From positions 21,137-66,535 of the forward strand of contig NZ_VDGG01000025.1 of NCBI RefSeq assembly GCF_006861775.1: a DNA stretch of 45,399 bases. Direction: 5' to 3'. Of the stretch, positions 4,853 to 20,420 are shown piece after piece (the stretch's first letter is position 1; each line of letters opens with the position of its first letter). The position numbers and the translations under genes were made by a program. The notes under the pieces were generated by a model. The model was not told the origin of the DNA. It saw only the letters and a program-made list of their open reading frames with translations, and did not search any database. Source of the stretch: Psychrobacillus soli. Its GTDB lineage: Bacteria; Bacillota; Bacilli; Bacillales_A; Planococcaceae.

Positions 4853-4859
4853 AATGTGA

Positions 4860-4994: not shown

Positions 4995-5078
4995 TTGTCG
5001 TGTTCAACGATGTCATTGTCTCATTAGAGGTGTGTATTGTCGTGTTCAGTGGCGAGCTTGTCGCGTTCAATCATTTAT
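4995..5078. repeat. Intergenic array, four units, 21-bp period, core TTGTCGTGTTCA
   Basis: Four consecutive 21-nt units begin at 4995, 5016, 5037 and 5058. Each starts TTGTC; units 1, 3 and 4 continue CGTGTTCA, CGTGTTCA and GCGTTCA, while unit 2 is degenerate (TTGTCTCATTAG). The second half of each unit is not conserved. The array lies after the nup terminator and before the ymfF promoter, and has no open frame with a plausible start. Function unknown. Confidence 0.6.
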
Positions 5079-5117
5079 TATTAATACCGGACCCCGATAA
5101 GCTAGTTTTTTCATTGG

Positions 5118-5241
5118 TTTTCGCTGCAGACGGCGACTCCAGTGGGATCAAGTGAGTAAGATGAGACTTCACAACGTACGCGCAAGCGGCGGTGAAGGCT
5201 CATCACTCACCCCACGGAAAGCGTCCGTCCTGCAGCGAAAA
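5118..5241. repeat. 124-bp imperfect palindromic element
   Basis: The outer arms TTTTCGCTGCAG (5118-5129) and CTGCAGCGAAAA (5230-5241) are perfect complements. Inside, ACGGCGACTCCAGTGGG and GTGAGTAAGATGAGACTTCAC on the left match, with a few mismatches, the complement of the right half (GTGAAGGCTCATCACTCACC, then CCACGGAAAGCGTCCGT). The centre is GC-rich. The GC content is far above the surrounding intergenic DNA. The look is that of the dispersed palindromic repeats found many times in Planococcaceae/Bacillaceae genomes; that identity is from memory and not from a search. A short open frame runs through it but is a by-product of the repeat. Confidence 0.7.
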
Positions 5242-5330
5242 TCACAGTGGTCACTTAATAGAACTCTCTACGACGCATTCTCTGTATTATCTACGATATT
5301 CCATTCATCGTTTCCATTTGCTATAGTTGT

Positions 5331-5360
5331 TTGAATATGTACAATGAATACATGTATAGT
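5331..5360 (+). promoter_or_regulatory. Candidate sigma-A promoter for ymfF
   Basis: TTGAAT at 5331-5336 and TATAGT at 5355-5360 with an 18-bp spacer, about 47 bp before the ymfF start. Confidence 0.5.
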
Positions 5361-5406
5361 AAAATGGTATAAGAGATAAACTAGAAAGAAAAAGGGGGAT
5401 AACAAC

Positions 5407-6684
5407 ATGTTTCAACAATTCGAACTTGCCCGAGGAGTTAAACTTTACGTAAGACCGACAGAACAATTTAAAACGATTAATATTTCGTTTAAATGGAAAC
5501 AACAGCTAACCGAAGAACAAGCAGCAATTCGTGCTGTTTTAGCGAATGTATTGCAATATAGTAATGCTGAATATCAAACAAACGCGGAATTCCGCAAACG
5601 TTTAGATGACTTATATGGTGCTGTTTTATATTTTGATACGGGGAAAAAAGGGAATCATCATATTTTTTCGTTGAATGCAGAAACAGTAAACGATGCTTAT
5701 TTATCCAATGAAAAAGTGGTAGATGAAGTATTCACCTTACTACATACAGTCTTATTTAAACCAAAATTAGTAGATGGAAAATTTGTTGAAACGATTGTCA
5801 AGAGAGAAAAAGAACAAGTCATTGAACGAATTCAATCGATGTATGATGATAAAACGAGATACGCGCAACAACGTTTACTTGAAAATATTCGACCAAATCA
5901 CGCGGCTTCTATTTCGGCTAACGGTACAGTTCCAGCAGTGAAAGCGGTAACGAACGAACAATTAGTAGAGATGCATAATACACTTCTCACAAAAGACAAT
6001 TTGTCTATTTATATTGTCGGGGATGTAAATGTGCAAGAAATAAAAGAAAAAATAGAGCGCCATTTTCCTTTCGCAAATAGATCGGAGGAACTTGTGCATG
6101 AAGTAGAAGTGACAAAAACTTCGAATGAAAAAGGATTTTTACATGAAATACAAGATATGAAACAAGGAAAACTGCATATAGCTTATCGTACACCTGTCAC
6201 TTTTTTCTCGGAGGAATTCCCAATTATGCAAATAACTAATGGTATATTTGGTGGGTTTGCTCATTCTAAAATATTTATGAACGTGCGAGAAAAAGAAAGT
6301 ATGGCCTATTATGCCTCAAGTAGCTACTCTTCTTTATATGGATTAATATTCGTCTTAGCAGGAATTGATGCAAATTTACAGGAAAAGGCTGTAAAGTTAA
6401 TAGATGAACAGTTAAAAGCGATGCAAGAAGGGGACATTTCGGATTTAGAAATAAATCAAACAAAATCGATGCTAACGAATCAATTAAAAGAGGCATTGGA
6501 TTCTGCCCGCGCACAAATTGAAATTTATGATCAGTATAAAGAAATAAACGAGTCATTTACAGTGGAAAACTGGGTTGCCAAATGGTCCAATGTAACGAAG
6601 GAACAAATCGGACAAATGGCACAAAAAATAGAGAAGGAATTCGTCTATTTCCTATCTGGTAAGGAAGGTGCAGCCAATGAATGA
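5407..6684 (+). CDS. ymfF: M16 peptidase-like protein lacking the zinc motif
   Basis: 425 residues with the two-domain M16 (insulinase-like) architecture. The HxxEH zinc site expected about 60-70 residues in is absent: the corresponding region reads RAVLANVLQYSNAEYQ. This is what is known for YmfF, the inactive partner of a heterodimer-like M16 pair in which YmfH carries the active site. The ribosome binding site is AAAGGGGG. It overlaps ymfH by 8 bp, so the two are probably made together. The role is unproven; the gene is a fixed neighbour of pgsA-cinA-recA in Bacillales. Confidence 0.85.
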   Translation: MFQQFELARGVKLYVRPTEQFKTINISFKWKQQLTEEQAAIRAVLANVLQYSNAEYQTNAEFRKRLDDLYGAVLYFDTGKKGNHHIFSLNAETVNDAYLSNEKVVDEVFTLLHTVLFKPKLVDGKFVETIVKREKEQVIERIQSMYDDKTRYAQQRLLENIRPNHAASISANGTVPAVKAVTNEQLVEMHNTLLTKDNLSIYIVGDVNVQEIKEKIERHFPFANRSEELVHEVEVTKTSNEKGFLHEIQDMKQGKLHIAYRTPVTFFSEEFPIMQITNGIFGGFAHSKIFMNVREKESMAYYASSSYSSLYGLIFVLAGIDANLQEKAVKLIDEQLKAMQEGDISDLEINQTKSMLTNQLKEALDSARAQIEIYDQYKEINESFTVENWVAKWSNVTKEQIGQMAQKIEKEFVYFLSGKEGAANE

Positions 6685-7981
6685 AACATATTTTAAACAA
6701 TTAGAAGAAACTTTATATTACGAGAAATTACCGAATGGGTTACAAGTGTATATTTTGCCGAAAAAAGGATTTTCTAAAACATTTGTTACTTTTTCTACGA
6801 AGTATGGATCAATTGATCGAGAATTTATACCACTTGGTAAAAAGGACGCGGTCGTTGTTCCTGACGGTATTGCCCATTTTTTAGAGCATAAAATGTTTGA
6901 GAAAGAAGAAGGAGATGTTTTTCAACAGTTTAGTGAAAAAGGTGCTTCTGCGAATGCATTCACTTCGTTTACAAAAACGACTTACTTATTCTCATCAACT
7001 GATCATGTATTAGAAAATACGAAGACATTGCTTGATTTTGTGCAACAGCCTTATTTCACGGAAGAAACCGTAGAAAAAGAAAAGGGTATCATTGCCCAGG
7101 AAATAACGATGTACGATGATCAGCCTGATTGGCGTTTATACTTTGGTGCAATTGAGAATATGTATAAAGAGCATCCGGTGAAAATTGATATTGCAGGAAC
7201 GGTAGAATCCATTGATAAAATTACTGCGGATCATTTGTATGAGTGTTATAACACATTCTATCACCCATCTAATATGACTGTATTTGTTGTTGGTGCGGTG
7301 AATCCACAGGAAATGATGGCTTTTATAAAACAAGATCAAGCTTCTAAAACATTCGAAGCACCACAAGAAATTCAACGATTCTTCCCGACCGAACAACAAA
7401 ATGTTGCTTTTTCAGAACGTTCTTTACAAATGGATGTGCAAAAACCAAAAATTATTTATGGCATTAAAGCAAATAACACGAATATTTCAGGCAAAGAGAT
7501 GTTGAATTATGAGCTATCGATGCAAGTAGCAATTGAACTCTTATTTGGCAGAACATCTACATTTTATCAGGATGTTTATGAAAATGGATTAATCGATGAA
7601 TCGTATTCAGCAGACTTTTCCATGGAGCAAGGGTATGGATTTACAATGATCGGCTCCGATACTGTAAATGCAAAAGAACTTACCGAAAAAATTAAACAAT
7701 CGATTATAGAGCATGGAAAAGCGTGGCAGTTTACGGATGCTGATTTGAAGCGGGTTACACGCAAAAAGATTGGTTTTTTCTTAAGAGCTTTGAATTCAAT
7801 CGAATATATTGCAAACCAATTCACAAGATATTCATTTAATGATATGAATTTATTTGATGTTGTCCCTGCACTCGAAAATTTAACAATGGAACAAGTGAAA
7901 CAAGCATTTGAATCTTTGAAGGATGAGCAAACGCATACTGTATTTACGATCGTTCCATTCGATAAAAACAGTGATGGGTAA
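6677..7981 (+). CDS. ymfH: M16 family zinc peptidase-like protein
   Basis: 434 residues from the ATG at 6677, which is preferred over the in-frame GTG at 6668 because AAGGAAGG at 6661-6668 is correctly spaced for the ATG. The inverted zinc motif HFLEH is at residues 67-71, and the distal glutamate region follows about 70 residues later (EKEKGIIAQEITMYDDQP), so catalytic residues look intact. This is the active member of the YmfF/YmfH pair. The end overlaps ymfI by 8 bp. The substrate is unknown. Confidence 0.87.
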   Translation: MNETYFKQLEETLYYEKLPNGLQVYILPKKGFSKTFVTFSTKYGSIDREFIPLGKKDAVVVPDGIAHFLEHKMFEKEEGDVFQQFSEKGASANAFTSFTKTTYLFSSTDHVLENTKTLLDFVQQPYFTEETVEKEKGIIAQEITMYDDQPDWRLYFGAIENMYKEHPVKIDIAGTVESIDKITADHLYECYNTFYHPSNMTVFVVGAVNPQEMMAFIKQDQASKTFEAPQEIQRFFPTEQQNVAFSERSLQMDVQKPKIIYGIKANNTNISGKEMLNYELSMQVAIELLFGRTSTFYQDVYENGLIDESYSADFSMEQGYGFTMIGSDTVNAKELTEKIKQSIIEHGKAWQFTDADLKRVTRKKIGFFLRALNSIEYIANQFTRYSFNDMNLFDVVPALENLTMEQVKQAFESLKDEQTHTVFTIVPFDKNSDG

Positions 7982-8705
7982 AAAGTTTGCATTAATTGTA
8001 GGTGCTTCTGGAGAAATAGGAAATACCATTTGTCGTGAATTAGCAGACAATGGCTGGTCTCTATACCTACACTATTCAAGCAATAAAGCACGTGTAAGCT
8101 CGCTTATGAATGAGTTGGAACATTCGTACCCTACACAAGAGTTTATGCTTATACAAGCAGATATGAGGGAAGCAAGCTCTATCGAAAAATTAGCAAATTC
8201 AATTTTTTCCCTTCATTCGATTATTTTTGCTCATGGACATAGCTTGTATAAAGGGCTAGAAGATACAACAGTGGAAGATATACGCCACTTGTTTCAAGTA
8301 CATGTGGAGCATCCAATGTTCCTTTTAGGAAAAGTGACCTCGAAGCTTCGAAAGCATTTGCATAGTTCGATTATTTTCGTTGGATCTATTTGGGGTGAAA
8401 CGGGGGCTTCTTATGAAGCGGCTTACTCTGCTGCTAAAGGAGCTCAACATGCATTTGTGAAAGCTTATGCAAAAGAGGTTGCGCACGCAAGAATTACTGT
8501 AAATGCGGTAGCTCCAGGATTCATCGATACGAAAATGAATATCCATGTGGAAGATGAAGCACGTACACTTATTTTAGAAGAAATACCTGCAGGTGTTTTC
8601 GGCACGACGCAAGACGTAGCAAATGCGGTCGTCTTTTTGACTAGTGAAAAAGCAAATTATATAACGGGTCAAATTATTCGTGTAAACGGCGGATGGTATA
8701 TTTAA
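7974..8705 (+). CDS. ymfI: Short-chain dehydrogenase/reductase
   Basis: 243 residues from the ATG at 7974, inside the end of ymfH. The NAD(P)-binding loop is GASGEIG (residues 10-16), a variant of the usual TGxxxGxG. The catalytic YxxxK pair is present in YSAAK, with a preceding serine in FVGSIWGE. The C-terminal NAVAPGFIDTKMN and GQIIRVNGGWYI match 3-oxoacyl-ACP reductase (FabG-like) SDRs. In B. subtilis a small DUF3243 gene (ymfJ) follows; it is absent here and a terminator stands in that place. The actual substrate cannot be read from the sequence. Confidence 0.83.
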   Translation: MGKKFALIVGASGEIGNTICRELADNGWSLYLHYSSNKARVSSLMNELEHSYPTQEFMLIQADMREASSIEKLANSIFSLHSIIFAHGHSLYKGLEDTTVEDIRHLFQVHVEHPMFLLGKVTSKLRKHLHSSIIFVGSIWGETGASYEAAYSAAKGAQHAFVKAYAKEVAHARITVNAVAPGFIDTKMNIHVEDEARTLILEEIPAGVFGTTQDVANAVVFLTSEKANYITGQIIRVNGGWYI

Positions 8706-8712
8706 CAGAAGT

Positions 8713-8750
8713 AAAAGAAAAGAGAGAAGTTCATGCTCTTTTCTTTTTTT
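8713..8750 (+). terminator. Terminator after ymfI
   Basis: 12-bp stem AAAAGAAAAGAG / CTCTTTTCTTTT around an 11-nt loop, ending in a run of T. Confidence 0.75.
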
Positions 8751-8831
8751 CTTTTATTCGACCCGGAATTCATATATGATAGAACTTATAATGGGTAAAT
8801 AACGTCATCTAACAAGAGAGGATAGATACGT

Positions 8832-9638
8832 ATGGCATGTGAGTGGTTTTTTGAGTACGAAATTCAAATAAATCGTCCCGGACTTTTAGGGGATATTTCT
8901 TCTTTACTTGGTATGCTTCGAGTAAATATTGTTACGATTAATGGCGTAGATGAAGGTCGTCGTGGTATGCTTATAAAAGCAGAAAAAAAGGAAAATGTGG
9001 AGCGTTTTGAGCATATCGCTTCTACGATGGAAACCATTCATTTAACTAAATTTAGAGAACCGAAGCTTCGAGATCGTTTGGCAGTGCGTCATGGTCGGTA
9101 TATCCAACGTGATGCGGATGATAAAAAAACATTTCGATTTGTTCGTGCAGAGTTAGGAATTCTTGTGGACTTTATGGCGGAAATCTTTAAACAAGAAGGT
9201 CATAAGCTTATTGGGATAAGAGGAATGCCTCGTGTCGGAAAAACCGAATCGGTCGTTGCTGCGAGCGTTTGTGCAAATAAAAAATGGATTTTTCTTTCTT
9301 CTACAATGATTAAACAAACTATTAGAAGCCAACTTATTGGGGACGAGTTTAGCGACCATAATATTTTTATTCTTGATGGCATTGTGACGAGAAATTCAAA
9401 TGATGAAAAACATCAAATGTTAGTAAGAGAAATGATGAGAATGCCTACGATTAAAGTAGTAGAGCATCCTGATATGTTCATTCAACACTCCGAGTACTCC
9501 ATTGACGATTTTGACTATATTATTGAGCTTCGTCATAATCCCGAAGAAGAAATTTCGTATGAAATGATGGAGAAAAACCACACAATGTCGGACAAAGGAA
9601 TGAGTGGCTTTGGTGGGTTTGGTGGATTTAATTTTTAA
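8832..9638 (+). CDS. ymfK: YmfK-like protein: ACT domain plus P-loop region (DUF3388)
   Basis: 268 residues. The first ~75 form an ACT-like regulatory domain (EYEIQINRPGLLGDISSLLGML, VNIVTINGVDEG). A second domain follows with a Walker A-like loop GMPRVGKT at residues 131-138, then an aspartate strand FILDGIV. The tail is unusual, a short glycine/phenylalanine repeat (GFGGFGGFNF). The arrangement and neighbours match YmfK (DUF3388) of Bacillus. The ACT domain suggests amino-acid sensing and the P-loop suggests nucleotide binding, but no activity is established. Confidence 0.8.
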   Translation: MACEWFFEYEIQINRPGLLGDISSLLGMLRVNIVTINGVDEGRRGMLIKAEKKENVERFEHIASTMETIHLTKFREPKLRDRLAVRHGRYIQRDADDKKTFRFVRAELGILVDFMAEIFKQEGHKLIGIRGMPRVGKTESVVAASVCANKKWIFLSSTMIKQTIRSQLIGDEFSDHNIFILDGIVTRNSNDEKHQMLVREMMRMPTIKVVEHPDMFIQHSEYSIDDFDYIIELRHNPEEEISYEMMEKNHTMSDKGMSGFGGFGGFNF

Positions 9639-9654
9639 TGGGCAGGTGTTTTAG

Positions 9655-10509
9655 TTGACTGAACTTGGCGCTCGCTTAAAAGAAGCGAGATTAGCAAAAG
9701 GGTATAGTATTGAGGATTTACAAGAAATAACGAAGATTCAAAAAAGGTATTTGACGGGTATTGAAGAAGGAAATTATGCCACAATGCCAGGTGCATTTTA
9801 TGTGCGTGCATTTATTAAACAATATGCAGAGGCTGTTGGTTTAAACGGAGACGAACTTTTGGAAACGTATAAAACCGATATCCCTTCTCCAGCGAACGAC
9901 GAACTGTCTAAAAGTATTCCCGCTACACCATCTAGAAGAACTTTAGGTGGACGCTCGTCGAACAAATTTATGGAAGTTTTCCCGATGATTGTCGCTGTAT
10001 TATTTGTTATTGCAATTATTGTGATGTTTTGGTTCTTATACCAGAACAAACCGGGAGGGTCATCTGAATCATTTGAACCTAAAGATGAGCTTGTGATTGA
10101 ACAACAGCCACAAACAGAGCAAGACATAAAGGATCCAGTAGTGGAGGAAGAAGAACCGGAAGAACCTGTTGAGGAAGAAGTAGAAGAGCCGGAACCTGCG
10201 CAACAGCTGACTTTTGTGGAAACGCAAGGGGAAACGTCTACGTATGATTTAACTGGTGCAGAAAGTTATGTAGTGAAATTGGTCGCAACGAATAATACTT
10301 GGTTAAACATTAGAGACCAAGATAACAAAATTTTAGTTGATAAAGCAATCGTAGCTGGCGAGACTTTCGAATTAGATGTGGCTAGTTCATCCAGAGTTCG
10401 CGTACGTATTGGTTCAACTCCAGGTAATACAGTTTATATGAATGACCAAGTAGTTGAATTCCCAACCGATAGACCTACGCAAAATTTAGTTATACAGTTT
10501 CAAAAATAG
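9655..10509 (+). CDS. ymfM: RodZ-like membrane protein with N-terminal HTH
   Basis: 284 residues from a TTG start at 9655, 16 bases after ymfK. Residues 1-70 are a Cro/CI-type HTH domain (ARLKEARLAKGYSIEDLQEITKIQ). A single membrane segment lies near residues 108-130 (FPMIVAVLFVIAIIVMFWFLY). A Glu/Pro-rich extracellular linker (about 145-180) and a DUF4115 beta domain at the C-terminus complete the usual RodZ layout. RodZ links MreB to the cell-wall elongation machinery at the membrane. The stop codon sits in the stem of a small terminator at 10506-10535. Confidence 0.85.
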   Translation: MTELGARLKEARLAKGYSIEDLQEITKIQKRYLTGIEEGNYATMPGAFYVRAFIKQYAEAVGLNGDELLETYKTDIPSPANDELSKSIPATPSRRTLGGRSSNKFMEVFPMIVAVLFVIAIIVMFWFLYQNKPGGSSESFEPKDELVIEQQPQTEQDIKDPVVEEEEPEEPVEEEVEEPEPAQQLTFVETQGETSTYDLTGAESYVVKLVATNNTWLNIRDQDNKILVDKAIVAGETFELDVASSSRVRVRIGSTPGNTVYMNDQVVEFPTDRPTQNLVIQFQK

Positions 10510-10535
10510 TCATCTTTTAGATGGCTATTTTGTTT
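10506..10535 (+). terminator. Short terminator at the end of ymfM
   Basis: Ten-bp stem ATAGTCATCT / AGATGGCTAT (one G-T wobble) around a TTT loop, followed by TTTGTTT. The TAG stop codon of ymfM is in the stem. Likely partial, since pgsA starts 25 bases on. Confidence 0.6.
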
Positions 10536-10559
10536 GAAAATGAAAGGAGTTACATATAA

Positions 10560-11138
10560 ATGAATATACCGAATCAAATTTCGATGTTCCGTATTTTTTT
10601 AATACCAGTATTTATGTTTTTTATGCTTGTAAACTTTAACTGGGGAGATGTCAGTTTTCTTGGTGCGACGATTCCGGTAGGGCATTTAATTGGAGCAATT
10701 ATTTTTATTATCGCATCGATTACGGACTTCATTGATGGTTACTATGCGAGAAAATATAATTTAGTAACGAATATGGGGAAATTTTTGGACCCACTAGCAG
10801 ATAAACTACTAGTGTCTGCTGCGCTTATTATTTTAGTACAATTGGGAGTAGCCCCAGCTTGGGTAGTCATTTTAATCATTAGCCGTGAGTTTGCAGTAAC
10901 TGGACTACGTTTAATCCTTGCAAACGAAGGAGAAGTGGTTGCAGCTAACCAACTAGGTAAAATTAAAATGTGGACGCAAATTATAGCCATCTCTTCTTTA
11001 CTATTAGGAAATGTATTTTTTGAAATGTTCCATATTCCTTTTGATATAATTATGTTGTATGTTTGTTTATTCTTTACATTATGGTCCGGCTTTGATTATT
11101 TTTATATAAATCGTAAAGTGTTACTGGATTCTAAGTAG
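10560..11138 (+). CDS. pgsA: CDP-diacylglycerol-glycerol-3-phosphate 3-phosphatidyltransferase
   Basis: Makes phosphatidylglycerol phosphate from CDP-diacylglycerol and glycerol-3-phosphate, the committed step to phosphatidylglycerol and cardiolipin, at the cytoplasmic membrane. 192 residues, as in B. subtilis. The full CDP-alcohol phosphatidyltransferase signature is visible: D59-G60-x2-A63-R64-x8-G73-x3-D77-x3-D81. Several hydrophobic helices surround it. AAAGGAG lies before the ATG. cinA follows 15 bases after the stop. Confidence 0.95.
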   Translation: MNIPNQISMFRIFLIPVFMFFMLVNFNWGDVSFLGATIPVGHLIGAIIFIIASITDFIDGYYARKYNLVTNMGKFLDPLADKLLVSAALIILVQLGVAPAWVVILIISREFAVTGLRLILANEGEVVAANQLGKIKMWTQIIAISSLLLGNVFFEMFHIPFDIIMLYVCLFFTLWSGFDYFYINRKVLLDSK

Positions 11139-11153
11139 GAAGGATGTTTTTTT

Positions 11154-12401
11154 GTGAAAGCTGAAATTATTGCAGTTGGTTCTGAATTATTATTAGGTCA
11201 AATTTCTAATACAAATGCACGATTCATTTCTTCACAGTTAGCAGAGTTAGGAATTGATGTTTACTATCATACAGTCGTTGGTGATAATCCTAATCGTTTA
11301 GTAGACTCTATTAAAATTGCGGAGAATCGAGCAGACTTAATCATTTTTTCAGGTGGATTAGGACCTACCAAAGATGATTTAACGAAAGAGACGATCTCGA
11401 AACATTTAAACAAAAATCTTGTATTAGATCATCATGCATTAATCTATATTGAAGATTTCTTCAAACGCATGAATCGAAAGATGACAGAAAATAACAAAAA
11501 ACAAGCACTTGTTTTAGAAGGTTGTACTGTTTTAGAAAACAAGCATGGGATGGCACCTGGAATGTTTTTATCGACCAAAACGCATTCGTATATTCTACTT
11601 CCAGGTCCACCAAAAGAAATGGAGCCAATGTTCCAATTCGAAGCGAAACCTATTCTTTCTAAGCTACTACATAATGAATCCATCATTAAGTCCCATGTTA
11701 TTCGATTTTACGGGATTGGAGAAGCAGAACTAGAAACGGAAGTACAAGATTTATTGCACAATCAAACGAATCCAACGCTTGCTCCACTTGCGTCTGATGG
11801 AGAAGTCACCTTACGATTAACGGCTAAAAGCGATACAGAAGAAGAAGCTTGGAAACTAATTGATGCTATGCAAACGGAGATTTTCAATCGATTAGGAAAA
11901 TTTGTGTATGGCTATAATAATGATTCTCTTGCATCGAAGCTGCGAGATATACTAGTTGAAAATAATTTAACGATCTCCGCTGCCGAAAGTATGACAGCCG
12001 GTTTATTTCAATCAGAACTTGCTGCGGTTTCGGGTATGGGGCAGGCTTTAGTTGGTGGGATGATTACGTACACCGAAGACATTAAAATAAAGCAACTAGG
12101 TGTCAAGGAAACGACGATCAAAGAATTTAGTGTAGTTTCTAGTCCATGTGCAGAAGAAATGGCCGTGCGGGTGAAAGAGAAGTTTGGTACTAATATTGGT
12201 GTCGGTATTACAGGTGCAGCTGGACCAGATGGGCACGGAGGACAACCGGCGGGAACGGTTTGGATTGGCATTGCAATCGACGATTCCGCACCAGTTTCTT
12301 ACAAGTTAAACCTATCCGGTATGCGGAATACAAACAGACTAAGAGCGGTGAAATTTACGATCCATTATTTAATACGCTTACTTCATGACCAAGGATTGTA
12401 G
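11154..12401 (+). CDS. cinA: CinA-family protein (MoCF-like domain + NMN amidohydrolase domain)
   Basis: 415 residues from a GTG start at 11154 behind AGGAAGG. The N-terminal half is a molybdopterin-binding-like domain (AVGSELLLGQISNTNA, FSGGLGPTKDDLTKE, LLPGPPKEMEPM). The C-terminal half is the PncC-type nicotinamide-nucleotide amidohydrolase domain (SAAESMTAGLF, GVGITGAAGPDGHGGQPAGTVWIGI). CinA-type proteins act in pyridine nucleotide recycling and are linked to competence in some Firmicutes. It is directly upstream of recA as in B. subtilis and streptococci, but here a strong terminator separates the two. Confidence 0.93.
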   Translation: MKAEIIAVGSELLLGQISNTNARFISSQLAELGIDVYYHTVVGDNPNRLVDSIKIAENRADLIIFSGGLGPTKDDLTKETISKHLNKNLVLDHHALIYIEDFFKRMNRKMTENNKKQALVLEGCTVLENKHGMAPGMFLSTKTHSYILLPGPPKEMEPMFQFEAKPILSKLLHNESIIKSHVIRFYGIGEAELETEVQDLLHNQTNPTLAPLASDGEVTLRLTAKSDTEEEAWKLIDAMQTEIFNRLGKFVYGYNNDSLASKLRDILVENNLTISAAESMTAGLFQSELAAVSGMGQALVGGMITYTEDIKIKQLGVKETTIKEFSVVSSPCAEEMAVRVKEKFGTNIGVGITGAAGPDGHGGQPAGTVWIGIAIDDSAPVSYKLNLSGMRNTNRLRAVKFTIHYLIRLLHDQGL

Positions 12402-12420
12402 AAAATTAATTTTGAACATA

Positions 12421-12458
12421 AAAAACAGCCTAAAATTGAATTTTGGGCTGTTTTTAGC
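12421..12458 (+). terminator. Terminator after cinA
   Basis: A 16-bp stem starting AAAAACAGCCTAAAAT (one wobble) with a TGA loop, ending in TTTTT. It uncouples recA from the upstream operon. Confidence 0.88.
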
Positions 12459-12487
12459 GACCAAAATGAAATAGTCGCAAAAATTAA

Positions 12488-12501
12488 CGAATAAACGTTC
12501 G
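12488..12501 (+). promoter_or_regulatory. LexA (SOS) box of recA
   Basis: CGAATAAACGTTCG matches the Bacillus LexA consensus CGAACRNRYGTTCG at 13 of 14 positions (T for C at position 5). It lies eight bases upstream of the recA -35 element. Confidence 0.75.
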
Positions 12502-12509
12502 CTTTTTTC

Positions 12510-12538
12510 TTGTGTATTTCTCAAAAACCTAGTATAGT
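12510..12538 (+). promoter_or_regulatory. recA promoter
   Basis: TTGTGT (12510-12515) and TATAGT (12533-12538) with a 17-bp spacer, about 46 bases before the recA start and just downstream of the LexA box. Confidence 0.7.
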
Positions 12539-12584
12539 AAACATAGAAATAAAAATCAGAGAATCTTCTAAGGAGGAAATATAG

Positions 12585-13649: not shown

Positions 13650-13657
13650 GATAATCA

Positions 13658-13687
13658 AAGTCTCTCAACTTGAGAGGCTTTTTTTTG
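13658..13687 (+). terminator. Terminator after recA
   Basis: Nine-bp stem AAGTCTCTC / GAGAGGCTT (one wobble) with a 5-nt loop and eight T. Confidence 0.85.
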
Positions 13688-13770
13688 AACTAGAAAGCAT
13701 GTAGTATCAACTCGCTAAAAACAAAATTTTATACAGGTATTTCGAATATGTGAATCCAGTAAATGGCTTA

Positions 13771-13874
13771 GGGCAACCAATCGGTCATTGAAAGCAACCA
13801 GTTCTACTCAGAAAGCAATCAAATCAATCCGAGAGCAACCAAATTGCTATTGAAAGCAACCAATTCATAAAATA
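13771..13874. repeat. Intergenic array, five units, ~21-bp period, core AAGCAACCAA
   Basis: The core GCAACC/GCAATC occurs at 13773, 13794, 13815, 13835 and 13856, a spacing of 21, 21, 20 and 21 bp. Each core is usually preceded by (GA)AA and followed by A and a variable half-unit. It begins about 85 bases after the recA terminator. No credible gene is present. Function unknown. Confidence 0.6.
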
Positions 13875-13885
13875 ACAAGTTTACT

Positions 13886-13980
13886 TGTAGTGTGACGACT
13901 ATTACTGTGACTCGTTTTTTATAAATGTTGCGCGTTTGGAGGGAAATGTTGTGCCAAGGCTCTTCTCAACGTTGCGAATT
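13886..13980. repeat. Possible second, more decayed repeat tract (core TGTTGCG)
   Basis: TGTGACTCGTTT, TGTTGCGCGTTT, TGTTGTGCCAAG and CGTTGCGAATTT occur near 13906, 13926, 13947 and 13970, spaced 20-23 bp. The similarity is loose, so this may be chance. Confidence 0.25.
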
Positions 13981-14149
13981 TATATATTGACATTCTTCTC
14001 CAAGTAAAGATTTTGTAGATACTTTGCTTAATACGCATTATTCCTATTTTAAGAAGTAAAGTATTAAGAATACAGCTATAATTCATTAGAAAACTTGCAA
14101 TTTTTTCATAAAAAAACCTTGTAAAATCAATAATATTCCTATCGTTTCC

Positions 14150-14178
14150 TTGACAGAGTATTTCTACATCTATACAAT
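14150..14178 (+). promoter_or_regulatory. rny promoter with overlapping palindrome
   Basis: TTGACA (14150-14155) and TACAAT (14173-14178) with a 17-bp spacer. The -10 element is inside the perfect palindrome ATACAATT-AA-AATTGTAT at 14172-14189, a possible operator. The start codon of rny is about 100 bases further on, so there is a sizeable leader. Confidence 0.65.
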
Positions 14179-14287
14179 TAAAATTGTATAATTTCTTTAT
14201 TAAATGATGAAAAAAGGCAATTCATTTATGCACTTGCATTTATGTGCCGACTGAAACTTAAAAAGAATAGCAATAGGGGGTGTTCGA

Positions 14288-15847
14288 ATGCCATATGAAA
14301 TTATCATCTCCGCTTTGCTTGGTCTGTTTGTCGGTGCCGTTGTTGGTTATAATTATCTGAAAAAAGTGAACGATTCAAAAGTGACTGGTGCAAAACAATC
14401 TTCTGCACTCATCCTAGATGAAGCAAAGCGAGAAGCAGAAGCATTAAAGAAAGAAGCACTATTAGAAGCCAAAGATGAAACTCACCAATTACGAAATGAA
14501 GCAGAATCTGACATCCGTGAACGCCGTATGGAACTGCAAAAACAGGAAAATCGGTTATTACAAAGAGAAGAGAACCTTGATCGTAAGGATGATGCTCTAA
14601 ACAAGAGAGAAGTAGGTCTTGAGCGTAAAGAAGATGCTCTAACCGAAAGACAACAGCATATCGAACGGAAAGAAAGTAAAGTGGACGAGCTAGTTGATAA
14701 ACAACAAAGTGAACTAGAACGAATTTCTACATTAACACGTGAAGAAGCAAGAGCGGTTATTCTTCAAGAAGTAGAAAATGAACTAGCTACTGATATAGCT
14801 GTTATGACAAAAGAATCGGAGACAAGAGCGAAAGAAGAGGCAGATAAGAAGTCTCGTGAAATTCTTTCACTTGCTTTACAACGATTTGCAGCCGATCATG
14901 TAGCAGAAACAACTGTTTCCGTTGTTAATCTACCGAATGACGAAATGAAAGGTCGTATCATTGGTCGTGAAGGTAGGAACATTCGTACGCTTGAAACTTT
15001 AACTGGAATCGATTTAATTATTGATGATACACCAGAAGCTGTTATACTATCAGGATTTGATCCGATACGAAGAGAAACTGCTCGTCTAGCACTAGAAAAA
15101 TTAGTGCAAGACGGACGAATTCATCCAGCACGTATTGAGGAAATGGTAGAAAAATCAAGAAGAGAAGTAGATGAACAGATTCGAGAAATCGGAGAACAAA
15201 CTACATTTGATGTAGGCGTTCATAATCTACATCCTGACTTGATCAAGATTCTTGGTAGATTACGTTATCGTACAAGCTATGGGCAAAACGTATTGAAACA
15301 TTCAACAGAAGTAGCAGTTTTAGCTGGTTTACTTGCTGCTGAACTTGGAGAAGACGTAACCCTTGCAAGACGTGCAGGATTACTTCACGATATTGGGAAA
15401 GCGATTGACCATGAAGTAGAAGGAAGCCACGTAGAAATTGGCGTCGAGCTTGCGACGAAATATAAAGAACATCCAGTCGTTATTAATAGTATTGCTTCTC
15501 ACCACGGAGATACAGAGGCCACTTCCGTTATTGCGGTATTAGTAGCAGCTGCTGACGCTTTATCGGCAGCACGACCTGGTGCAAGAAGTGAAACATTAGA
15601 AAACTACATTCGTCGTTTAGAAAAACTGGAAGAAATTTCGGAATCCTATGATGGTGTGGAAAAATCGTTTGCCATTCAAGCAGGGAGAGAGATTCGCATT
15701 ATGGTTCGTCCAGATCAAATTGATGATATTTCTGCTCATCGTTTGGCACGGGATATTCGTAAGCGAATCGAAGAAGAACTCGATTACCCAGGTCATATTA
15801 AAGTGACAGTAATTAGAGAGACTAGAGCTGTAGAATACGCAAAATAG
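14288..15847 (+). CDS. rny: Ribonuclease Y
   Basis: Membrane-anchored endoribonuclease that initiates decay of many mRNAs. 519 residues: an N-terminal membrane helix (about 5-24), a long charged coiled coil (about 30-200, e.g. [18 protein letters not shown]), a KH RNA-binding domain with GREG at 226-229, and an HD domain with H367-D368 (LLHDIGKA) as metal-binding catalytic pair. AGGGGGTG precedes the ATG. ymdB follows after an attenuator hairpin, the same order as in B. subtilis (ymdA-ymdB-spoVS). YmcA, encoded further on, works with RNase Y in some RNA maturation events. Confidence 0.96.
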
Positions 15848-15851
15848 AAGG

Positions 15852-15877
15852 AAGGCTTCGAAGTGAAGCCTTTTTTT
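15852..15877 (+). terminator. Terminator/attenuator between rny and ymdB
   Basis: Stem AAGGCTTC / GAAGCCTT around a 5-nt loop, then five further T. ymdB has its own start 22 bases on, so read-through is probable. Confidence 0.75.
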
Positions 15878-15898
15878 CGTTAAGGAAGTGGATGAATT

Positions 15899-16696
15899 AT
15901 GAAGATTTTATTTATAGGTGATATTGTTGGTTCAATTGGTAGAGAGACATTAGAAAGTTATTTACCAAGATTAAAGAGAAAGTATAATGTGGATGTCGTT
16001 ATTGCAAACGGTGAAAATGCTGCGGCTGGTCGTGGAATTACAAAGAATATTTTTCAAGACCTGCTACATATGGGTGTAGACGTCGTAACGATGGGGAACC
16101 ACACATGGGATCAAAAAGAAATTATGGATTTTATTGATGATACGGATTATTTAATTCGTCCTGCCAATTTTTCGGAAGAAGCGCCAGGCAAAGGAATGAC
16201 GTCAGTTTCCAAAAATGGGCATACTATTTCGGTTATTAATATGCACGGACGAACGTTTTTGCCGCCTCATGATGATCCTTTTAAAAAAGCGACGGAGTTA
16301 GTAGAAGAAGCGAAGAAATTATCGCCAATTGTTTTCGTTGATTTTCATGCGGAAGCAACGAGTGAAAAAATTGCTTTTGGATGGCATCTAGATGGTAAAG
16401 CTTCCGTTGTCGTAGGGACGCATACGCATGTACAAACAGCGGATTCTCGTATTTTACCAGGCGGTACAGCATATATTACAGACGTTGGTATGACTGGGCC
16501 TTATGACGAAGTTTTAGGGATGAAAAAAGAAGACGTCTTATACCGTTTTCAAACGAATATGCCAACTCGTTTTGAAGTACCGAAAAGTGGTCGTTCCGTA
16601 TTAAGTGGATTCTTTATAGAAGTAGATAATTCTACCGGAAAAGCTATTCATCAAGAACGTGTCTATATTAATGATGACTACCCATTTCAAGGCTAA
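15899..16696 (+). CDS. ymdB: YmdB-type metallophosphoesterase
   Basis: 265 residues of the calcineurin-like family. Metal-site motifs are in order: GDIVG with D8, NGENAAAGRG with E39/N40, GNHTWD with N67/H68, DFHAEATSEK, and GTHTHVQTAD near the C-terminal third. In B. subtilis YmdB is a phosphodiesterase with activity on 2',3'- and 3',5'-cyclic nucleotides and influences biofilm and motility gene expression. It lies between rny and spoVS as expected. Confidence 0.93.
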   Translation: MKILFIGDIVGSIGRETLESYLPRLKRKYNVDVVIANGENAAAGRGITKNIFQDLLHMGVDVVTMGNHTWDQKEIMDFIDDTDYLIRPANFSEEAPGKGMTSVSKNGHTISVINMHGRTFLPPHDDPFKKATELVEEAKKLSPIVFVDFHAEATSEKIAFGWHLDGKASVVVGTHTHVQTADSRILPGGTAYITDVGMTGPYDEVLGMKKEDVLYRFQTNMPTRFEVPKSGRSVLSGFFIEVDNSTGKAIHQERVYINDDYPFQG

Positions 16697-16781
16697 AAAA
16701 GTCTAAATATTTCTTCCGAAGCATAAGGTAGGTTATGGACGAAAGCAAGTTCATAATCTAGCTATAAAAGGAGAAATGATA

Positions 16782-17048
16782 GTGGATTCATTAAAAGTAT
16801 CTTCTCGTTCTAACCCCAATTCAGTTGCTGGAGCACTTGTTGCAGTAATTAGAGAACAAGGGTATGCAGAGATGCAAGCAGTAGGGGCAGGTGCACTAAA
16901 TCAGGCGATTAAAGCGATTGCGATTGCTAGAGGATTTGTTGCACCTAGTGGTACAGATTTAACTTGTTCACCTGCTTTCACAGATATCGTTATTTCGGGT
17001 GAAGATCGAACTGCTTTGAAGTTATTAGTAGAGAAAAGGGTAAAATAA
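16782..17048 (+). CDS. spoVS: Stage V sporulation protein S
   Basis: Small Alba-like protein required for spore coat and cortex steps in B. subtilis. The GTG at 16782 gives 88 residues (DSLKVSSRSNPNSVAGAL...), the usual length. The in-frame ATG at 16776 is only two or three bases after the ribosome binding site AAAAGGAG and is unlikely. The conserved core GAGALNQAIKAIAIARGF and VAPSGTDL is intact. Its presence supports a spore-forming host. A perfect hairpin terminator follows. Confidence 0.95.
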   Translation: MDSLKVSSRSNPNSVAGALVAVIREQGYAEMQAVGAGALNQAIKAIAIARGFVAPSGTDLTCSPAFTDIVISGEDRTALKLLVEKRVK

Positions 17049-17051
17049 CCG

Positions 17052-17088
17052 TGAAGTCGCTACTGATCGTTGTAGCGACTTCATTTTG
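17052..17088 (+). terminator. Terminator after spoVS
   Basis: Perfect 12-bp stem TGAAGTCGCTAC / GTAGCGACTTCA with an 8-nt loop, followed by TTTTG. Confidence 0.8.
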
Positions 17089-17223
17089 TATTTCGAATAT
17101 ATTGTGACGATTTCATTTCCGTCAAAGGTCTGATTTTGATGAAAAACATAGAGAATACATAGTGAATCGCACTACTTCATGGTAAACTAATGAAGGAAAA
17201 AAGCATTTAATGAACAATAAAAG

Positions 17224-17255
17224 CATTTTAGCAGGGTTCAAGTCCCTGCTAAATG
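17224..17255 (+). other. Hairpin resembling a tRNA T-arm in the korA leader
   Basis: TTTAGCAGGG (17227-17236) pairs perfectly with CCCTGCTAAA (17244-17253) around the 7-nt loop TTCAAGT, and with one bulge the stem extends to 17224/17255. GGGTTCAAGTCCC has the layout of a tRNA T-stem and loop. No acceptor, D or anticodon arm can be built around it, so it is not a tRNA gene. There is no T-run, so it is not a terminator. Confidence 0.55.
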
Positions 17256-17263
17256 AAGTTAAA

Positions 17264-17350
17264 GCCTCCGGCGGATGTTACAGATTTTGAAAGGAATTAA
17301 TTGAGCAGGCTCAATTCAAAATCTGAACACAAATACGCCAAGGCATATTT
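17264..17350. repeat. Structured element (nested inverted repeats) before korA
   Basis: CAGATTTTGAA (17281-17291) and TTCAAAATCTG (17315-17325) are perfect complements. Between them AATTGAGC and GCTCAATT (17299-17306, 17309-17316) form an inner hairpin. A third hairpin AAATACGCC-AA-GGCATATTT is at 17331-17350, and CCTCCGGCGG lies at the left border. It could be a folded leader or a copy of a dispersed repeat; it resembles repeats I associate with Lysinibacillus-type genomes, from memory only. Confidence 0.55.
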
Positions 17351-17376
17351 GATAATGACAGTAAGGAGATGTTTAT

Positions 17377-19119
17377 ATGTTGCAACAACTTTCTTGGAAA
17401 GTAGGAGGGCAGCAAGGAGAGGGTATTGAAAGTACTGGGGAAATGTTCTCTATGGCGATGAACCGCCTTGGATATTACTTATACGGATACCGTCATTTCT
17501 CTTCTCGAATTAAAGGTGGCCACACAAACAATAAAATCTGTGTACGTCCTACGCAAGTACGTACAATTCCAGATAATTTAGATATTTTAGTAGCATTTGA
17601 TCAAGAAACAATAGATGTAAATTACAAAGAACTAACAGAAAAAAGCGTTATTTTAGCGGATGCGAAATTTTCACCGGTAGCTCCGGAAGATTGCATTGCT
17701 CCAATGTATATCGTGCCATTTACAGAAGTTGCTGCAGAGCTAGGGACGTCACTGATGAAAAACATGGTAGCAATTGGAGCTACTTCTGCACTATTAAACT
17801 TAGATAAAGCAGTTTTCCAAGAAGTTGTAAATGAAATTTTCGGTAAAAAAGGACAAGAAGTCGTTGAAAAGAATATGCAAGCCATTCAACAAGGCTTCGA
17901 TACGATGGCGGAACAATTAGGAGACCGTCTAGGCGAGTGGGAACTTGTTCCAGCAGACGGGCAACACCGGATGTTCATGATTGGAAATGATGCAATTGCA
18001 CTTGGAGCTTTAGCGGCAGGTGTTCGATTTATGGCAGCATATCCAATTACGCCAGCTTCCGAAATTATGGAATACATGATTAAAAAGCTGCCTTTATTTG
18101 GTGGAGCAGTTATCCAAACAGAAGACGAAATTGCTGCAGCTACAATGGCGATTGGATCTAACTACGGTGGTGTTCGTGCATTCACGGCTTCAGCGGGTCC
18201 TGGTTTATCGCTTATGATGGAAGCAATCGGTCTATCTGGCATGACAGAACAACCACTTGTTATTGTGGATACGCAGCGTGGTGGCCCATCCACTGGACTT
18301 CCAACGAAGCAAGAGCAATCCGATTTAATGCAAATGATTTACGGTACACATGGGGAAATTCCGAAAGTAGTTATTGCTCCAAGTACAGGAGAAGAAGCGT
18401 TCTTCGATACGATTCAAGCATTTAATATTGCGGAAGAATTACAACTTCCAGTAATTATTTTATCCGATTTACAACTTTCACTCGGTAAACAAACGGTAGA
18501 ACCATTTGATTATTCGAAAATTGAAATTCGTCGCGGTAAATTAGTGCAAAATGAGGAAATTCCAGAAGCAGTAGATAAATCTTATTTCAAACGCTTTGAA
18601 GTAACAGACGACGGCGTATCGCCACGCGTATTACCAGGAACAGAGCATGCCATTCACCATGTTACAGGTGTAGAACATGATGAGACTGGTAAGCCTTCAG
18701 AAGCTGCTTCTAATCGTATAGCGCAAATGGATAAGCGTATGAAAAAATTACAACATGTAAACTTTAATGAGCCTGTTTATGTAAATGCACCTTATGAAGA
18801 AGCAGATATTTTATTCGTCGGATTCAACTCGACTAGAGGTGTGTTAGAAGAGTTACAACAAACACTTATAGCGCAAGGAATGAAAGTGAATCATGCACAT
18901 ATCCGATTGATCCACCCATTCCCGTCTGGGGAAATGCAACCACTTGTAGCAAATGCGAAAAAAGTAGTCGTTGTAGAAAATAATGCAACAGGTCAGCTAG
19001 CGAACATTTTAAAAATGAATGTCGGCGGACATGATAAAGTGATCAATGTATTGAAATATGATGGAACACCATTCTTACCATTGCAGCTAGAAAAACAAGT
19101 AAAGGAGTTGCTTAACTGA
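17377..19119 (+). CDS. korA: 2-oxoacid:ferredoxin oxidoreductase, alpha (fused gamma-alpha) subunit
   Basis: 580 residues. The N-terminal ~190 residues are the gamma-type domain (GGQQGEGIESTGEMFSMAMNRLGYY, then SRIKGGHTNNKI). The alpha domain follows with the family motif YPITPASEIME, EDEIAAATMAIGSNYGG and TQRGGPSTGLPT, then a C-terminal transketolase-like domain. With KorB it would oxidatively decarboxylate 2-oxoglutarate or a related 2-oxoacid to the acyl-CoA, reducing ferredoxin. AAGGAG precedes the ATG. The stop overlaps the korB start by one base (TGATG). The 2-oxoglutarate assignment follows annotation habit in Bacillus; pyruvate or branched oxoacids are possible. Confidence 0.88.
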   Translation: MLQQLSWKVGGQQGEGIESTGEMFSMAMNRLGYYLYGYRHFSSRIKGGHTNNKICVRPTQVRTIPDNLDILVAFDQETIDVNYKELTEKSVILADAKFSPVAPEDCIAPMYIVPFTEVAAELGTSLMKNMVAIGATSALLNLDKAVFQEVVNEIFGKKGQEVVEKNMQAIQQGFDTMAEQLGDRLGEWELVPADGQHRMFMIGNDAIALGALAAGVRFMAAYPITPASEIMEYMIKKLPLFGGAVIQTEDEIAAATMAIGSNYGGVRAFTASAGPGLSLMMEAIGLSGMTEQPLVIVDTQRGGPSTGLPTKQEQSDLMQMIYGTHGEIPKVVIAPSTGEEAFFDTIQAFNIAEELQLPVIILSDLQLSLGKQTVEPFDYSKIEIRRGKLVQNEEIPEAVDKSYFKRFEVTDDGVSPRVLPGTEHAIHHVTGVEHDETGKPSEAASNRIAQMDKRMKKLQHVNFNEPVYVNAPYEEADILFVGFNSTRGVLEELQQTLIAQGMKVNHAHIRLIHPFPSGEMQPLVANAKKVVVVENNATGQLANILKMNVGGHDKVINVLKYDGTPFLPLQLEKQVKELLN

Positions 19120-19985
19120 TGGTAACATTTAAAGATTTTCGTAATAATGTAAAACCAAACTGGTGCCCAGGATGTGGTGACTTCTCTGTTCAAGCAGCTA
19201 TTCAGCGTGCAGCAGCCAATGTTGGCATACAGCCTCACGATCTAGCGGTAATCTCTGGTATCGGTTGTTCAGGACGTATTTCAGGCTATATCCATTCATA
19301 CGGATTCCACGGAATTCACGGTCGTGCTTTACCAATAGCACAAGGATTGAAAATGGCAAACAAAGATCTACACGTCATCGCTTCTGGTGGAGACGGAGAT
19401 GGATTTGCAATCGGTATCGGCCATACTATTCATTCGATTCGTCGTAATATCGATATGACATATGTCGTAATGGATAACCAAATTTACGGATTAACAAAAG
19501 GGCAAACTTCTCCACGTTCAGCGGAAGGATTTAAAACGAAATCGACGCCAGGTGGAGCAATAGAGCCTTCTCTTAAACCACTTGAACTAGCACTTACATC
19601 AGGAGCAACTTTTGTAGCTCAAGGATTCTCTTCTGATATTAAAGAGTTAACTGCAATCATTGAAGCTGGTATTAACCATAAAGGTTTTGCTTTCATCAAT
19701 GTATTCAGTCCTTGCGTAACATACAATAAAGTAAATACGTACGACTGGTTCAAAGAAAACTTAACGAAGCTTTCCAATGTGGAAGGGTATGACCATACAA
19801 ATCGTGAAGAAGCAATGCGAGTTGTGATGGAAAATGAAGGATTAGTGACTGGAATCATTTATCAAAATGAAAATGCGCCGTCTTACCAAGAACAAGTTCC
19901 TGGCTACGCACCAACGCCACTCGTAGACCAAAACTTAAAGATGAGTGAAAAAGAATTTAATACATTATTACAAGACTTTATGTAA
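19119..19985 (+). CDS. korB: 2-oxoacid:ferredoxin oxidoreductase, beta subunit
   Basis: 288 residues, the TPP- and [4Fe-4S]-binding subunit. Cluster ligands are likely C16 and C19 (WCPGCGDFS), C50 (GIGCSGR) and C199 (FSPCVTYN). The TPP motif runs from GDGDGFAIGIGH (91-102) to VMDNQIYG about 25 residues on. It is translationally coupled to korA and ends at a terminator. Confidence 0.9.
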   Translation: MVTFKDFRNNVKPNWCPGCGDFSVQAAIQRAAANVGIQPHDLAVISGIGCSGRISGYIHSYGFHGIHGRALPIAQGLKMANKDLHVIASGGDGDGFAIGIGHTIHSIRRNIDMTYVVMDNQIYGLTKGQTSPRSAEGFKTKSTPGGAIEPSLKPLELALTSGATFVAQGFSSDIKELTAIIEAGINHKGFAFINVFSPCVTYNKVNTYDWFKENLTKLSNVEGYDHTNREEAMRVVMENEGLVTGIIYQNENAPSYQEQVPGYAPTPLVDQNLKMSEKEFNTLLQDFM

Positions 19986-19990
19986 TGACA

Positions 19991-20025
19991 AAGAGGCTAC
20001 CTACGTTTATGGGTAGCTTTTTTGT
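19991..20025 (+). terminator. Terminator after korB
   Basis: Stem around GCTACC / GGTAGC, extended by outer A-T pairs, then six T. Confidence 0.8.
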
Positions 20026-20077
20026 TGGTTAGAAAATGATGAAGCGGGCATTTCCCATCGCGAGGTGGGGGTGTCTA

Positions 20078-20420
20078 AATCGCAAGATCCTAAGCCCGAA
20101 TCGCAAGATAGAGTACTTAAATCGCAAGATCCCAAGCCCAAATCACAAGATAGGGACTCCAAACCGCAAGATACACTCTCCAAATTGCGAATCGCAAGAT
20201 ATATACCTCGAATCGCAAGATAGAATGTCTAAATCGCAAGATCCCAAGCCCAAATCACAAGATAGGGACTCCAAACCGCAAGATATACTCTCCAAATTGC
20301 GAATCGCAAGATATATACCTCGAATCGCAAGATAGAGTATCCAAATCGCAAAATTCCTAGCCAGAATGGCAAGATAGATACCTCAAATCGCAAGATCTCT
20401 AGCCAAAACCGCAAGTTTCA
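20078..20420. repeat. Intergenic array, about 16-18 units, strict 21-bp period, core AATCGCAAGAT
   Basis: Taking the T of the core AATCGCAAG as reference, units fall at 20080, 20101, 20122, 20143, 20164, 20185, then 20192, 20213, 20234, 20255, 20276, 20297, then 20304, 20325, 20346, 20367, 20388 and 20409. All steps are 21 except two identical 7-bp steps where AAATTGCGAATCGC makes a 28-bp unit. The second half of each unit varies (CCCAAGCCC, AGGGACTCC, ATATACCTCG). Frames through it give heptad peptide repeats, but the 7-bp steps break any frame and no ribosome binding site is present. It lies between the korB terminator and the miaB promoter. Confidence 0.85.
20119..20336. repeat. 112-bp tandem segmental duplication inside the array
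   Basis: Bases 20119-20224 recur at 20231-20336, an offset of 112 bp (5 x 21 + 7), with a single difference (C at 20174, T at 20286). The near identity implies a recent duplication of a five-unit block. Confidence 0.85.

What the first reader, a model, noticed from the sequence alone, without database searches (positions are those of the whole stretch)
4995..20420. Three operon gaps carry arrays with different cores but the same 21-bp period
The arrays at 4995-5078, 13771-13874 and 20078-20420 share no core sequence (TTGTCGTGTTCA, AAGCAACCAA, AATCGCAAGAT), yet all repeat every 21 bp and all lie between a terminator and the next operon of the conserved backbone. Each unit has a conserved half of about 10 bp and a variable half. 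21 bp is two helical turns, so each core would face the same side of the DNA. This hints at a class of element defined by period and location, perhaps bound by a nucleoid-type protein or made by a slippage-and-drift process. Functional meaning is inference.
Basis: partly seen in the sequence, partly recalled or inferred. Interest (0 to 1): 0.82.

Follow-up and report, generated by a model that had tools for sequence, protein, structure and literature searches.

The report
Lineage-specific 21-bp phased intergenic DNA arrays
Between operons this soil bacterium and its relatives carry rows of a short DNA word set two helix turns apart; the word differs from lineage to lineage but the spacing hardly changes, which points to an undescribed class of protein-binding array.

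Summary
The three arrays are real; the window is from a Psychrobacillus genome. A has 16 units, B five, C three plus a decayed one, spaced 21 bp with two 28s and one 20. Core-A spacings are quantised: 78 of 95 at 21, 14 at 18, 28 or 29, none at 19-20 or 22-27, while spacers are poorly conserved. Cores diverge 2-3 times more slowly than spacers in two tests. Own arrays avoid divergent gaps and face either way. One orthologous gap holds an array in 7 of 8 Psychrobacillus genomes although the core differs in two. RNA structure, intrinsic bending, coding and plasmid or phage origin found little or no support. Best reading: sites for an unidentified DNA-binding protein assembling on one DNA face, with fast-changing specificity. 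Protein and function are unknown; selfish DNA is the main rival.

The parts
4858..4883 (+). intrinsic terminator before array C
4995..5078 (+). array C, core TTGTCGTGTTCA, units at 4995, (5016 decayed), 5037, 5058
13657..13681 (+). intrinsic terminator after recA, before array B
13755..13770 (+). conserved leader of the B element (CCAGTAAATGG near-palindrome)
13771..13865 (+). array B, core RAGCAAYCAA, 5 units, spacings 21, 21, 20, 21
13874..13889 (+). conserved tail of the B element (CAAGTTTACTTG near-palindrome)
13923..13977 (+). short array of a fourth core D (AATGTTGCGC): two units 21 bp apart and a weak third about 23 bp on, read by eye
   Evidence: D arrays elsewhere in the genome
19993..20024 (+). 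terminator-like hairpin after the 2-oxoacid oxidoreductase beta subunit gene, before array A
   Evidence: read by eye; not listed by the scan
20078..20418 (+). array A, core AATCGCAAGAT, 16 units; 5-unit blocks of 112 bp closed by a 28-bp step

Best explanation
Each array is a row of weak sites for a sequence-specific DNA-binding protein that works only as an assembly. One subunit reads one 9-12 bp core. Neighbouring subunits touch because cores recur every two helix turns (20-21 bp) on one DNA face. Spacers are largely free in sequence but fixed in length. The assembly sits in gaps without divergent promoters, in the window beyond operon terminators, where it would act as an orientation-independent roadblock, insulator or chromosome-folding point. 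Each lineage has its own core word or words because the protein's specificity, and its sites with it, change fast, like a dialect. Shown here: period, near-fixed spacer length, slower core evolution, lineage-specific cores, gap bias. Inferred: that a protein binds, its cooperativity, and any cellular role.
For: Period 20-21 in 15 of 19 own and 10 of 15 other-genus arrays, none of 6 in shuffles. Core-A spacings of 95 distinct units: 78 at 21, 8 at 29, 3 at 28, 3 at 18, one each at 9, 30 and 42, none at 19-20 or 22-27; spacer identity 0.39 against 0.26 by chance, core identity 0.90; 18 and 28.5 differ by one helix turn. Core versus spacer divergence 21/430 vs 61/379 in block repeats of A and 91/1295 vs 206/1337 in 29 dispersed copies of B. 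Exact A cores: 36 found, 34 with an exact neighbour, the other 2 inside an array with altered neighbours, 0 single in coding DNA. Orientation to tandem genes 15 same, 10 opposite; 0 of 34 placed arrays in divergent gaps against 47 of 218 gaps, and 0 of 12 against 41 of 172 in the stretches not chosen for arrays. Relatives with their own core: CGTGATCAT 21 of 21 pairs at 21 bp, CTGGCGTTC 302 pairs, TAGCCCATAA in OK028 17 of 26 at 21. Same gap, changed core.
Against: No binding protein was identified and no binding or expression data exist. Gaps without promoters also tolerate neutral repeats, so location is not specific to function. B is spread as a copied element; its pair count varies from 0 to 191 among congeners, which looks like turnover of selfish DNA, and 12 of its spacings are 20. 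Some steps break phase (18, 28, 29). Period is 20 in one species and 19/21 in another. Array-only use is shown for A alone: exact E cores occur singly in coding DNA 9 times (shuffled-core mean 2.4), and C and D have singles too. 17 loci of other named Planococcaceae gave no 20-21 bp array with the 9-base detector.
Confidence: 0.55

Rival explanations
1. Selfish or neutral intergenic repeats: minisatellites that expand by unequal exchange, some (B) spread as MITE-like elements by a transposase that binds the cores; no host function.
For: B has a conserved leader and tail and 43 matches over 100 bp, the window's own included, with 40 of 204 candidates scored; 5-unit blocks are duplicated in A; copy number varies widely among congeners; gaps used are insertion-tolerant. 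A transposase binding phased sites would also explain core constraint.
Against: Neutral exchange predicts equal divergence along the unit, not slower cores, and 1-bp spacing drift, which is absent in A. By eye, A arrays at different loci share no flanks. No match of A or B in plasmid or phage collections.
Confidence: 0.3
2. The arrays act as RNA (repeat-carrying 3' ends or small RNAs that titrate a protein or RNA).
For: Many lie downstream of genes; one of 12 strands tested folds better than shuffles (A minus strand, z -2.3).
Against: Orientation to neighbouring genes is mixed (15/10); 11 of 12 strands fold like shuffles; no Rfam match in the window at gathering score.
Confidence: 0.05
3. Sequence-independent DNA bending: phased cores curve the helix, and any core that bends will do.
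For: Two-turn phasing; one array (P. faecigallinarum) reaches a curvature that only 2 of 100 shuffles reach, another (L216) 6 of 100.
Against: The other 15 of 17 arrays are reached by 10 to 99 of 100 shuffles in a wedge model that responds to an A-tract control (parameters recalled); one core shared by unrelated loci is not needed for bending.
Confidence: 0.05
4. Coding repeats or annotation artefact: 21 bp is seven codons.
For: Open frames run through some arrays (99 aa at 20036-20335; 261 aa in L016); 3 of 37 own arrays lie inside ORF calls.
Against: Steps of 20 and 28-29 bp break frame; the S. cyprini period is 20; coding DNA shows 1 of 11 arrays at 21.
Confidence: 0.01

Closest known systems
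BrickBuilt, a MITE-borne minisatellite of Porphyromonas gingivalis (PMC4596501; abstract and passages read)
   Same: tandem units of similar length in intergenic sites, with leader and tail, many copies, species-limited; close to the B element
   Different: its 23-nt repeats have no spacer regions between them; no conserved and variable halves are described in the passages read; one repeat in one species, not many cores at one period
ParR-binding parC centromeres of plasmids, e.g. pSK41 20-bp repeats (PMC9426499; passages read)
   Same: direct repeats bound by a protein around which the DNA wraps, 20 bp in pSK41; family-specific repeats with non-cross-reacting proteins
   Different: a plasmid centromere upstream of parM; here many chromosomal loci and no partition genes among the 8 neighbouring proteins scanned
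Plasmid iterons (recalled; search gave no paper)
   Same: about 20-22 bp direct repeats on one helix face
   Different: single origin next to a rep gene; not dispersed
Neisseriaceae DNA uptake sequence dialects (PMC3630211; search listing only)
   Same: short genome-wide word that changes between related lineages
   Different: single sites (recalled), not phased arrays
BIME/REP elements of enterobacteria (recalled)
   Same: mosaic repeats beyond operon ends
   Different: palindromic units, no 21-bp phased cores

Membership tests
MITE-borne minisatellite (BrickBuilt type) | tandem units inside a mobile element with leader, tail and inverted-repeat ends | tested here: inconclusive
   B has leader and tail with near-palindromes; ends, target duplications and empty sites not established. 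A shows no shared flanks by eye
MITE-borne minisatellite (BrickBuilt type) | whole unit repeated without spacers | tested here: not met
   A spacer identity 0.39 vs core 0.90; information per column in 17 core sets
Neutral minisatellite | divergence even along the unit and free spacing drift | tested here: not met
Plasmid parC centromere / ParR | phased direct repeats about 20 bp apart | tested here: met
Plasmid parC centromere / ParR | adjacent parM and parR genes, plasmid-borne | tested here: not met
   8 proteins by the arrays scanned: permease, peptidase M16, RecA, RNase Y, oxidoreductase, MiaB-type and DctM families; no sequence like array A or B in 72,556 plasmid records
Plasmid iterons | repeats at a replication origin beside rep | not tested
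   only the 8 proteins were scanned; none matches a rep family
CRISPR array | repeats of about 21 bp or more with longer unique spacers and cas genes (recalled) | tested here: not met
   core about 11 bp, spacer about 10 bp, spacers duplicated in blocks; cas genes not searched
DNA uptake sequence | dense single sites genome-wide, also in genes (recalled) | tested here: not met
   core A: all 36 exact copies in arrays, 0 single in coding DNA. For core E, 9 single copies in coding DNA, so not met for A only
Structured RNA | stable or conserved fold, known family | tested here: not met
   no Rfam hit in the window; 11 of 12 strands fold like shuffles

The most novel reading that the evidence does not exclude
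A family of chromosomal array elements shared by Planococcaceae and perhaps wider Bacillales, in which the helical period is conserved and the word is not: each lineage rewrites the same kind of scaffold, even at the same operon boundary, in its own 9-12 bp word matched to a fast-evolving protein. It would be a bacterial counterpart of satellite DNA with co-evolving binding proteins.
Probability: 0.4. Interest if true: 0.92.

Novelty: categorically new. Interest (0 to 1): 0.82.

Why it matters
Repeat families are normally recognised by sequence. Here the conserved property is a spacing of two helix turns, so similarity searches link only a few of these arrays. My searches of a library of open-access papers (no preprints) listed no paper whose title or abstract describes them; apart from PMC4596501 I saw those results only as listings, and one search listed 12 of 320 papers. 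If a protein assembles on the arrays, it would be an unknown architectural or operon-boundary system in common Gram-positive bacteria, with lineage-specific codes that make protein-DNA co-evolution directly testable. If they are selfish, they are a new kind of bacterial satellite.

Tried and rejected
Intrinsic curvature: little support, 2 of 17 arrays at or below 6 of 100 shuffles. RNA folding: 11 of 12 strands like shuffles. Coding: rejected. Known RNA family: none in the window. Plasmid or phage origin: no match for A or B. A single ancestral motif for all cores: not shown. With 16 cores, 12 pairs reach a score of 6 against a mean of 4.6 for intergenic words of equal length and GC (1 of 300 sets reach it), but the summed similarity is ordinary (109 of 300 reach it). 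An earlier set of 16 did exceed shuffles in the sum (0 of 400), but it held two pairs of cores from the same arrays; in it no common 4-position pattern stood out (36 of 200 shuffles reach it). So a few cores recur between genera (A with L235, E with P, L with N) and the rest look unrelated. Core boundaries were chosen by me, mostly. The pattern CTGGCG twice, in 101 genomes of the family, matched in 36, but its reversed control also matched often; the rows look like coding repeats and scattered pairs, not S. cyprini-like arrays (not checked). An A-like pair pattern matched 5 of 249 genomes of the class: this one, one other of the family (at 42, with a middle unit), and three of another family that share one near-identical 39-bp-spaced match, which I take for a conserved sequence rather than an array. 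The core CGGATAGCA pair matched 6 of 200 genomes, 13 of 14 rows at 20-21 bp; in one genome the two spacers are identical.

How samples were drawn. The 34 own stretches are contig starts and include the 463-base L023. The 60 stretches of other genomes were contig starts or positions on contigs of known length; some lie on or near hits of the CTGGCG search, but no 20-21 bp array found there has that core; three are under 5 kb. Five own stretches (L016-L020) were fetched because they hold A arrays; they and the window are but not in 32, 33 and 57. L023 and L116 were dropped. In one search the two AT-rich arrays (L194, L210) count among the 10 of 15. In one search only sites with local spacer identity of 0.6 or more were compared, L019 gave none, L017 shows no difference (5/63 vs 4/58), and repeated blocks are not independent. 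In one search the units at 9 and 30 are a weak L017 cluster and the 42 a skipped unit. B spacings: 65 at 21, 12 at 20, 1 at 22 (in a copy with undetermined bases), 12 others. In one search core columns hold more inserted bases than spacers (24 vs 5), perhaps an extra unit in one copy; not checked. With an 8-base detector Neobacillus, Paenisporosarcina (L048) and two AT-rich loci (L095, L110) also show 20-21 bp arrays that one search does not.
Full report
What is there. The window lies in contig C20 of a 4.23-Mb genome. Its CinA is 93-94% identical to those of Psychrobacillus sp. OK032, NEAU-3TGS and P. lasiicapitis, so I take it for a Psychrobacillus. The three arrays follow the terminators of a permease gene, recA and a 2-oxoacid oxidoreductase beta subunit gene. 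Array A has 16 units, B five, C three plus one decayed unit. A fourth core, D, follows B at 13923.

More than chance. In 34 own-genome stretches taken from contig starts (658,062 bases), strict three-copy arrays in intergenic DNA number 11: 8 at period 21, 2 at 42, 1 at 34. Ten shuffles gave none at 20-21; 555,204 coding bases gave 11 arrays, 1 at 21. Of 343 intergenic segments, 17 hold a repeated 8-mer at distance 21, 7 at 20, 1 at 22, 11 at 42 and 14 at 62. With a detector that allows one base of drift, 15 of 19 own arrays and 10 of 15 arrays in 60 stretches of other genomes of the family have period 20-21; one shuffle of each gave six arrays, none at 20-21. If periods from 14 to 60 were equally likely these counts would have probabilities near 1e-17 and 5e-11; arrays in one genome are not fully independent, since some are copies of one family.

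Cores. In this genome I found A AATCGCAAGAT, B RAGCAAYCAA, C TTGTCGTGTTCA, D AATGTTGCGC and E TTCCAACTAAA, all mainly at 21 bp. Relatives have others: TAGCCCATAA in Psychrobacillus OK028 (26 pairs, 17 at 21 bp, 7 at 40-42) and P. psychrotolerans (2 pairs); GCTCCTAAA in P. faecigallinarum (14 pairs), OK032 (8) and FJAT-22090 (2); CGTGATCAT in Sporosarcina cascadiensis (21 of 21 pairs at 21 bp although 11-41 was allowed); CTGGCGTTC in S. cyprini (302 pairs; the rows listed are at 20 or 40 with one at 21). Stretches of other genera gave AAGTTGNAACTC, TGACGGATAGCA, GGAGCGAATAAA, GTAACCACTC, ATAATCGCC and TTTCAGACGT at 20-21 bp, plus two weak AT-rich arrays. In some searches (12-14 genomes each) the pattern read backwards gave 0 matches in every genome. 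Core A is narrow: exact pairs in this genome and 4 of 8 other named Psychrobacillus, and in none of 5 genomes of other genera. Named loci of other groups were poor in such arrays: with the 9-base detector 20-21 bp arrays were 10 of 11 in 8 Psychrobacillus loci, 2 of 2 in 16 loci of Sporosarcina and kin, 0 of 1 in 17 of other Planococcaceae, 0 of 5 in 16 of Bacillaceae and others (a Neobacillus array shows at 40), 0 in 11 of Paenibacillaceae and others, 0 of 1 in 12 of Enterococcaceae. So the class is uneven even within the family.

How units evolve. For A, 95 distinct units in five genomes give 78 spacings of 21, 8 of 29, 3 of 28, 3 of 18, three stray values and none at 19-20 or 22-27. Spacers are 39% identical (26% by chance), cores 90%. 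The rare steps 18 and 28-29 lie one helix turn apart and close blocks of about five units that are duplicated as wholes. In homologous blocks cores differ at 21 of 430 sites and spacers at 61 of 379 (P 1.5e-7, sites not fully independent). In 29 dispersed copies of B, the best-scoring ones, cores differ from the consensus at 91 of 1295, spacers at 206 of 1337, the frame at 273 of 2576 (P 8e-12). Both point to selection on the core.

Where they lie. Of 37 own arrays of three or more units, 25 lie in tandem gaps, 9 in convergent, 0 in divergent, 3 unplaced; gaps of at least 150 bp are 135, 36 and 47. In tandem gaps 15 have the genes' orientation and 10 the opposite. In the stretches not chosen for arrays: 8 tandem, 4 convergent, 0 divergent, 3 unplaced, against 101, 30 and 41 gaps; in other genera 5, 4 and 1 (the AT-rich L210), against 212, 49 and 87. 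Exact A cores occur only in arrays; that does not hold for E (9 single copies in coding DNA) and is unclear for B, C and D.

One site, changing words. The gap between the oxidoreductase and MiaB-type genes, read in 8 Psychrobacillus genomes, holds a core-A array in five (window, OK032, NEAU-3TGS, P. lasiicapitis, FJAT-22090), a GCYCCTAAA array in P. faecigallinarum, a TAGCCCATAAA array in P. psychrotolerans and none in OK028. By eye NEAU-3TGS and P. lasiicapitis share several spacers; the others largely do not. The faecigallinarum and psychrotolerans cores differ at two of nine bases. In S. cascadiensis a gap in a similar place, before a 516-aa gene that I did not check, holds CGTGATCAT and CGCTCATA units mixed in phase. 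This suggests that words change in place across a whole array, but few gaps were compared, so it could be coincidence.

Mechanism. A protein that assembles on one face explains near-fixed spacer length, slow cores, variable spacers, array-only A cores and mixed orientation. What it does at operon ends, and whether for the cell or for itself, is inference. B's leader and tail and many copies show that at least one core travels inside a dispersed element like BrickBuilt (PMC4596501). The nearest physical model is ParR on plasmid parC, where repeats differ between families and proteins do not cross-react (PMC9426499, passages); membership is not met.

Limits. 'Categorically new' rests on that limited search.

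Noticed in passing
window 5118-5240: GC-rich inverted-repeat element (TTTTCGCTGCAG ... CTGCAGCGAAAA) right after array C; by eye, similar GC-rich elements with GCGACTCCAG or its complement stand in gaps of L036, L042 and L069.
   Followed up: no
window 20036-20335; L016 11139-11921: Open frames of 99 and 261 aa overlap core-A arrays, whose 21- and 18-bp steps are multiples of three; gene callers may annotate them as proteins.
   Followed up: partly
L073 11246-11946; L076 11246-11900: Neobacillus drentensis and Bacillus ISL-18 carry 51-52 bp arrays of TTGTCCAATAG in inverted pairs in the gap after cinA, possibly a related architecture.
   Followed up: no
L088 5362-6142: Alkalihalobacillus pseudalcaliphilus has a regular 52-bp array of about 10 units between genes.
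   Followed up: no
L069 15562-16392: Sporosarcina sp. ACRSL has 62-64 bp GC-rich repeats in a gap before a 517-aa gene, in a place like that of array A.
   Followed up: no
L019 13774-14050: An A array and a B array lie head to tail in one orientation, joined by a 19-bp step (by eye), so different cores can form one composite array.
   Followed up: partly
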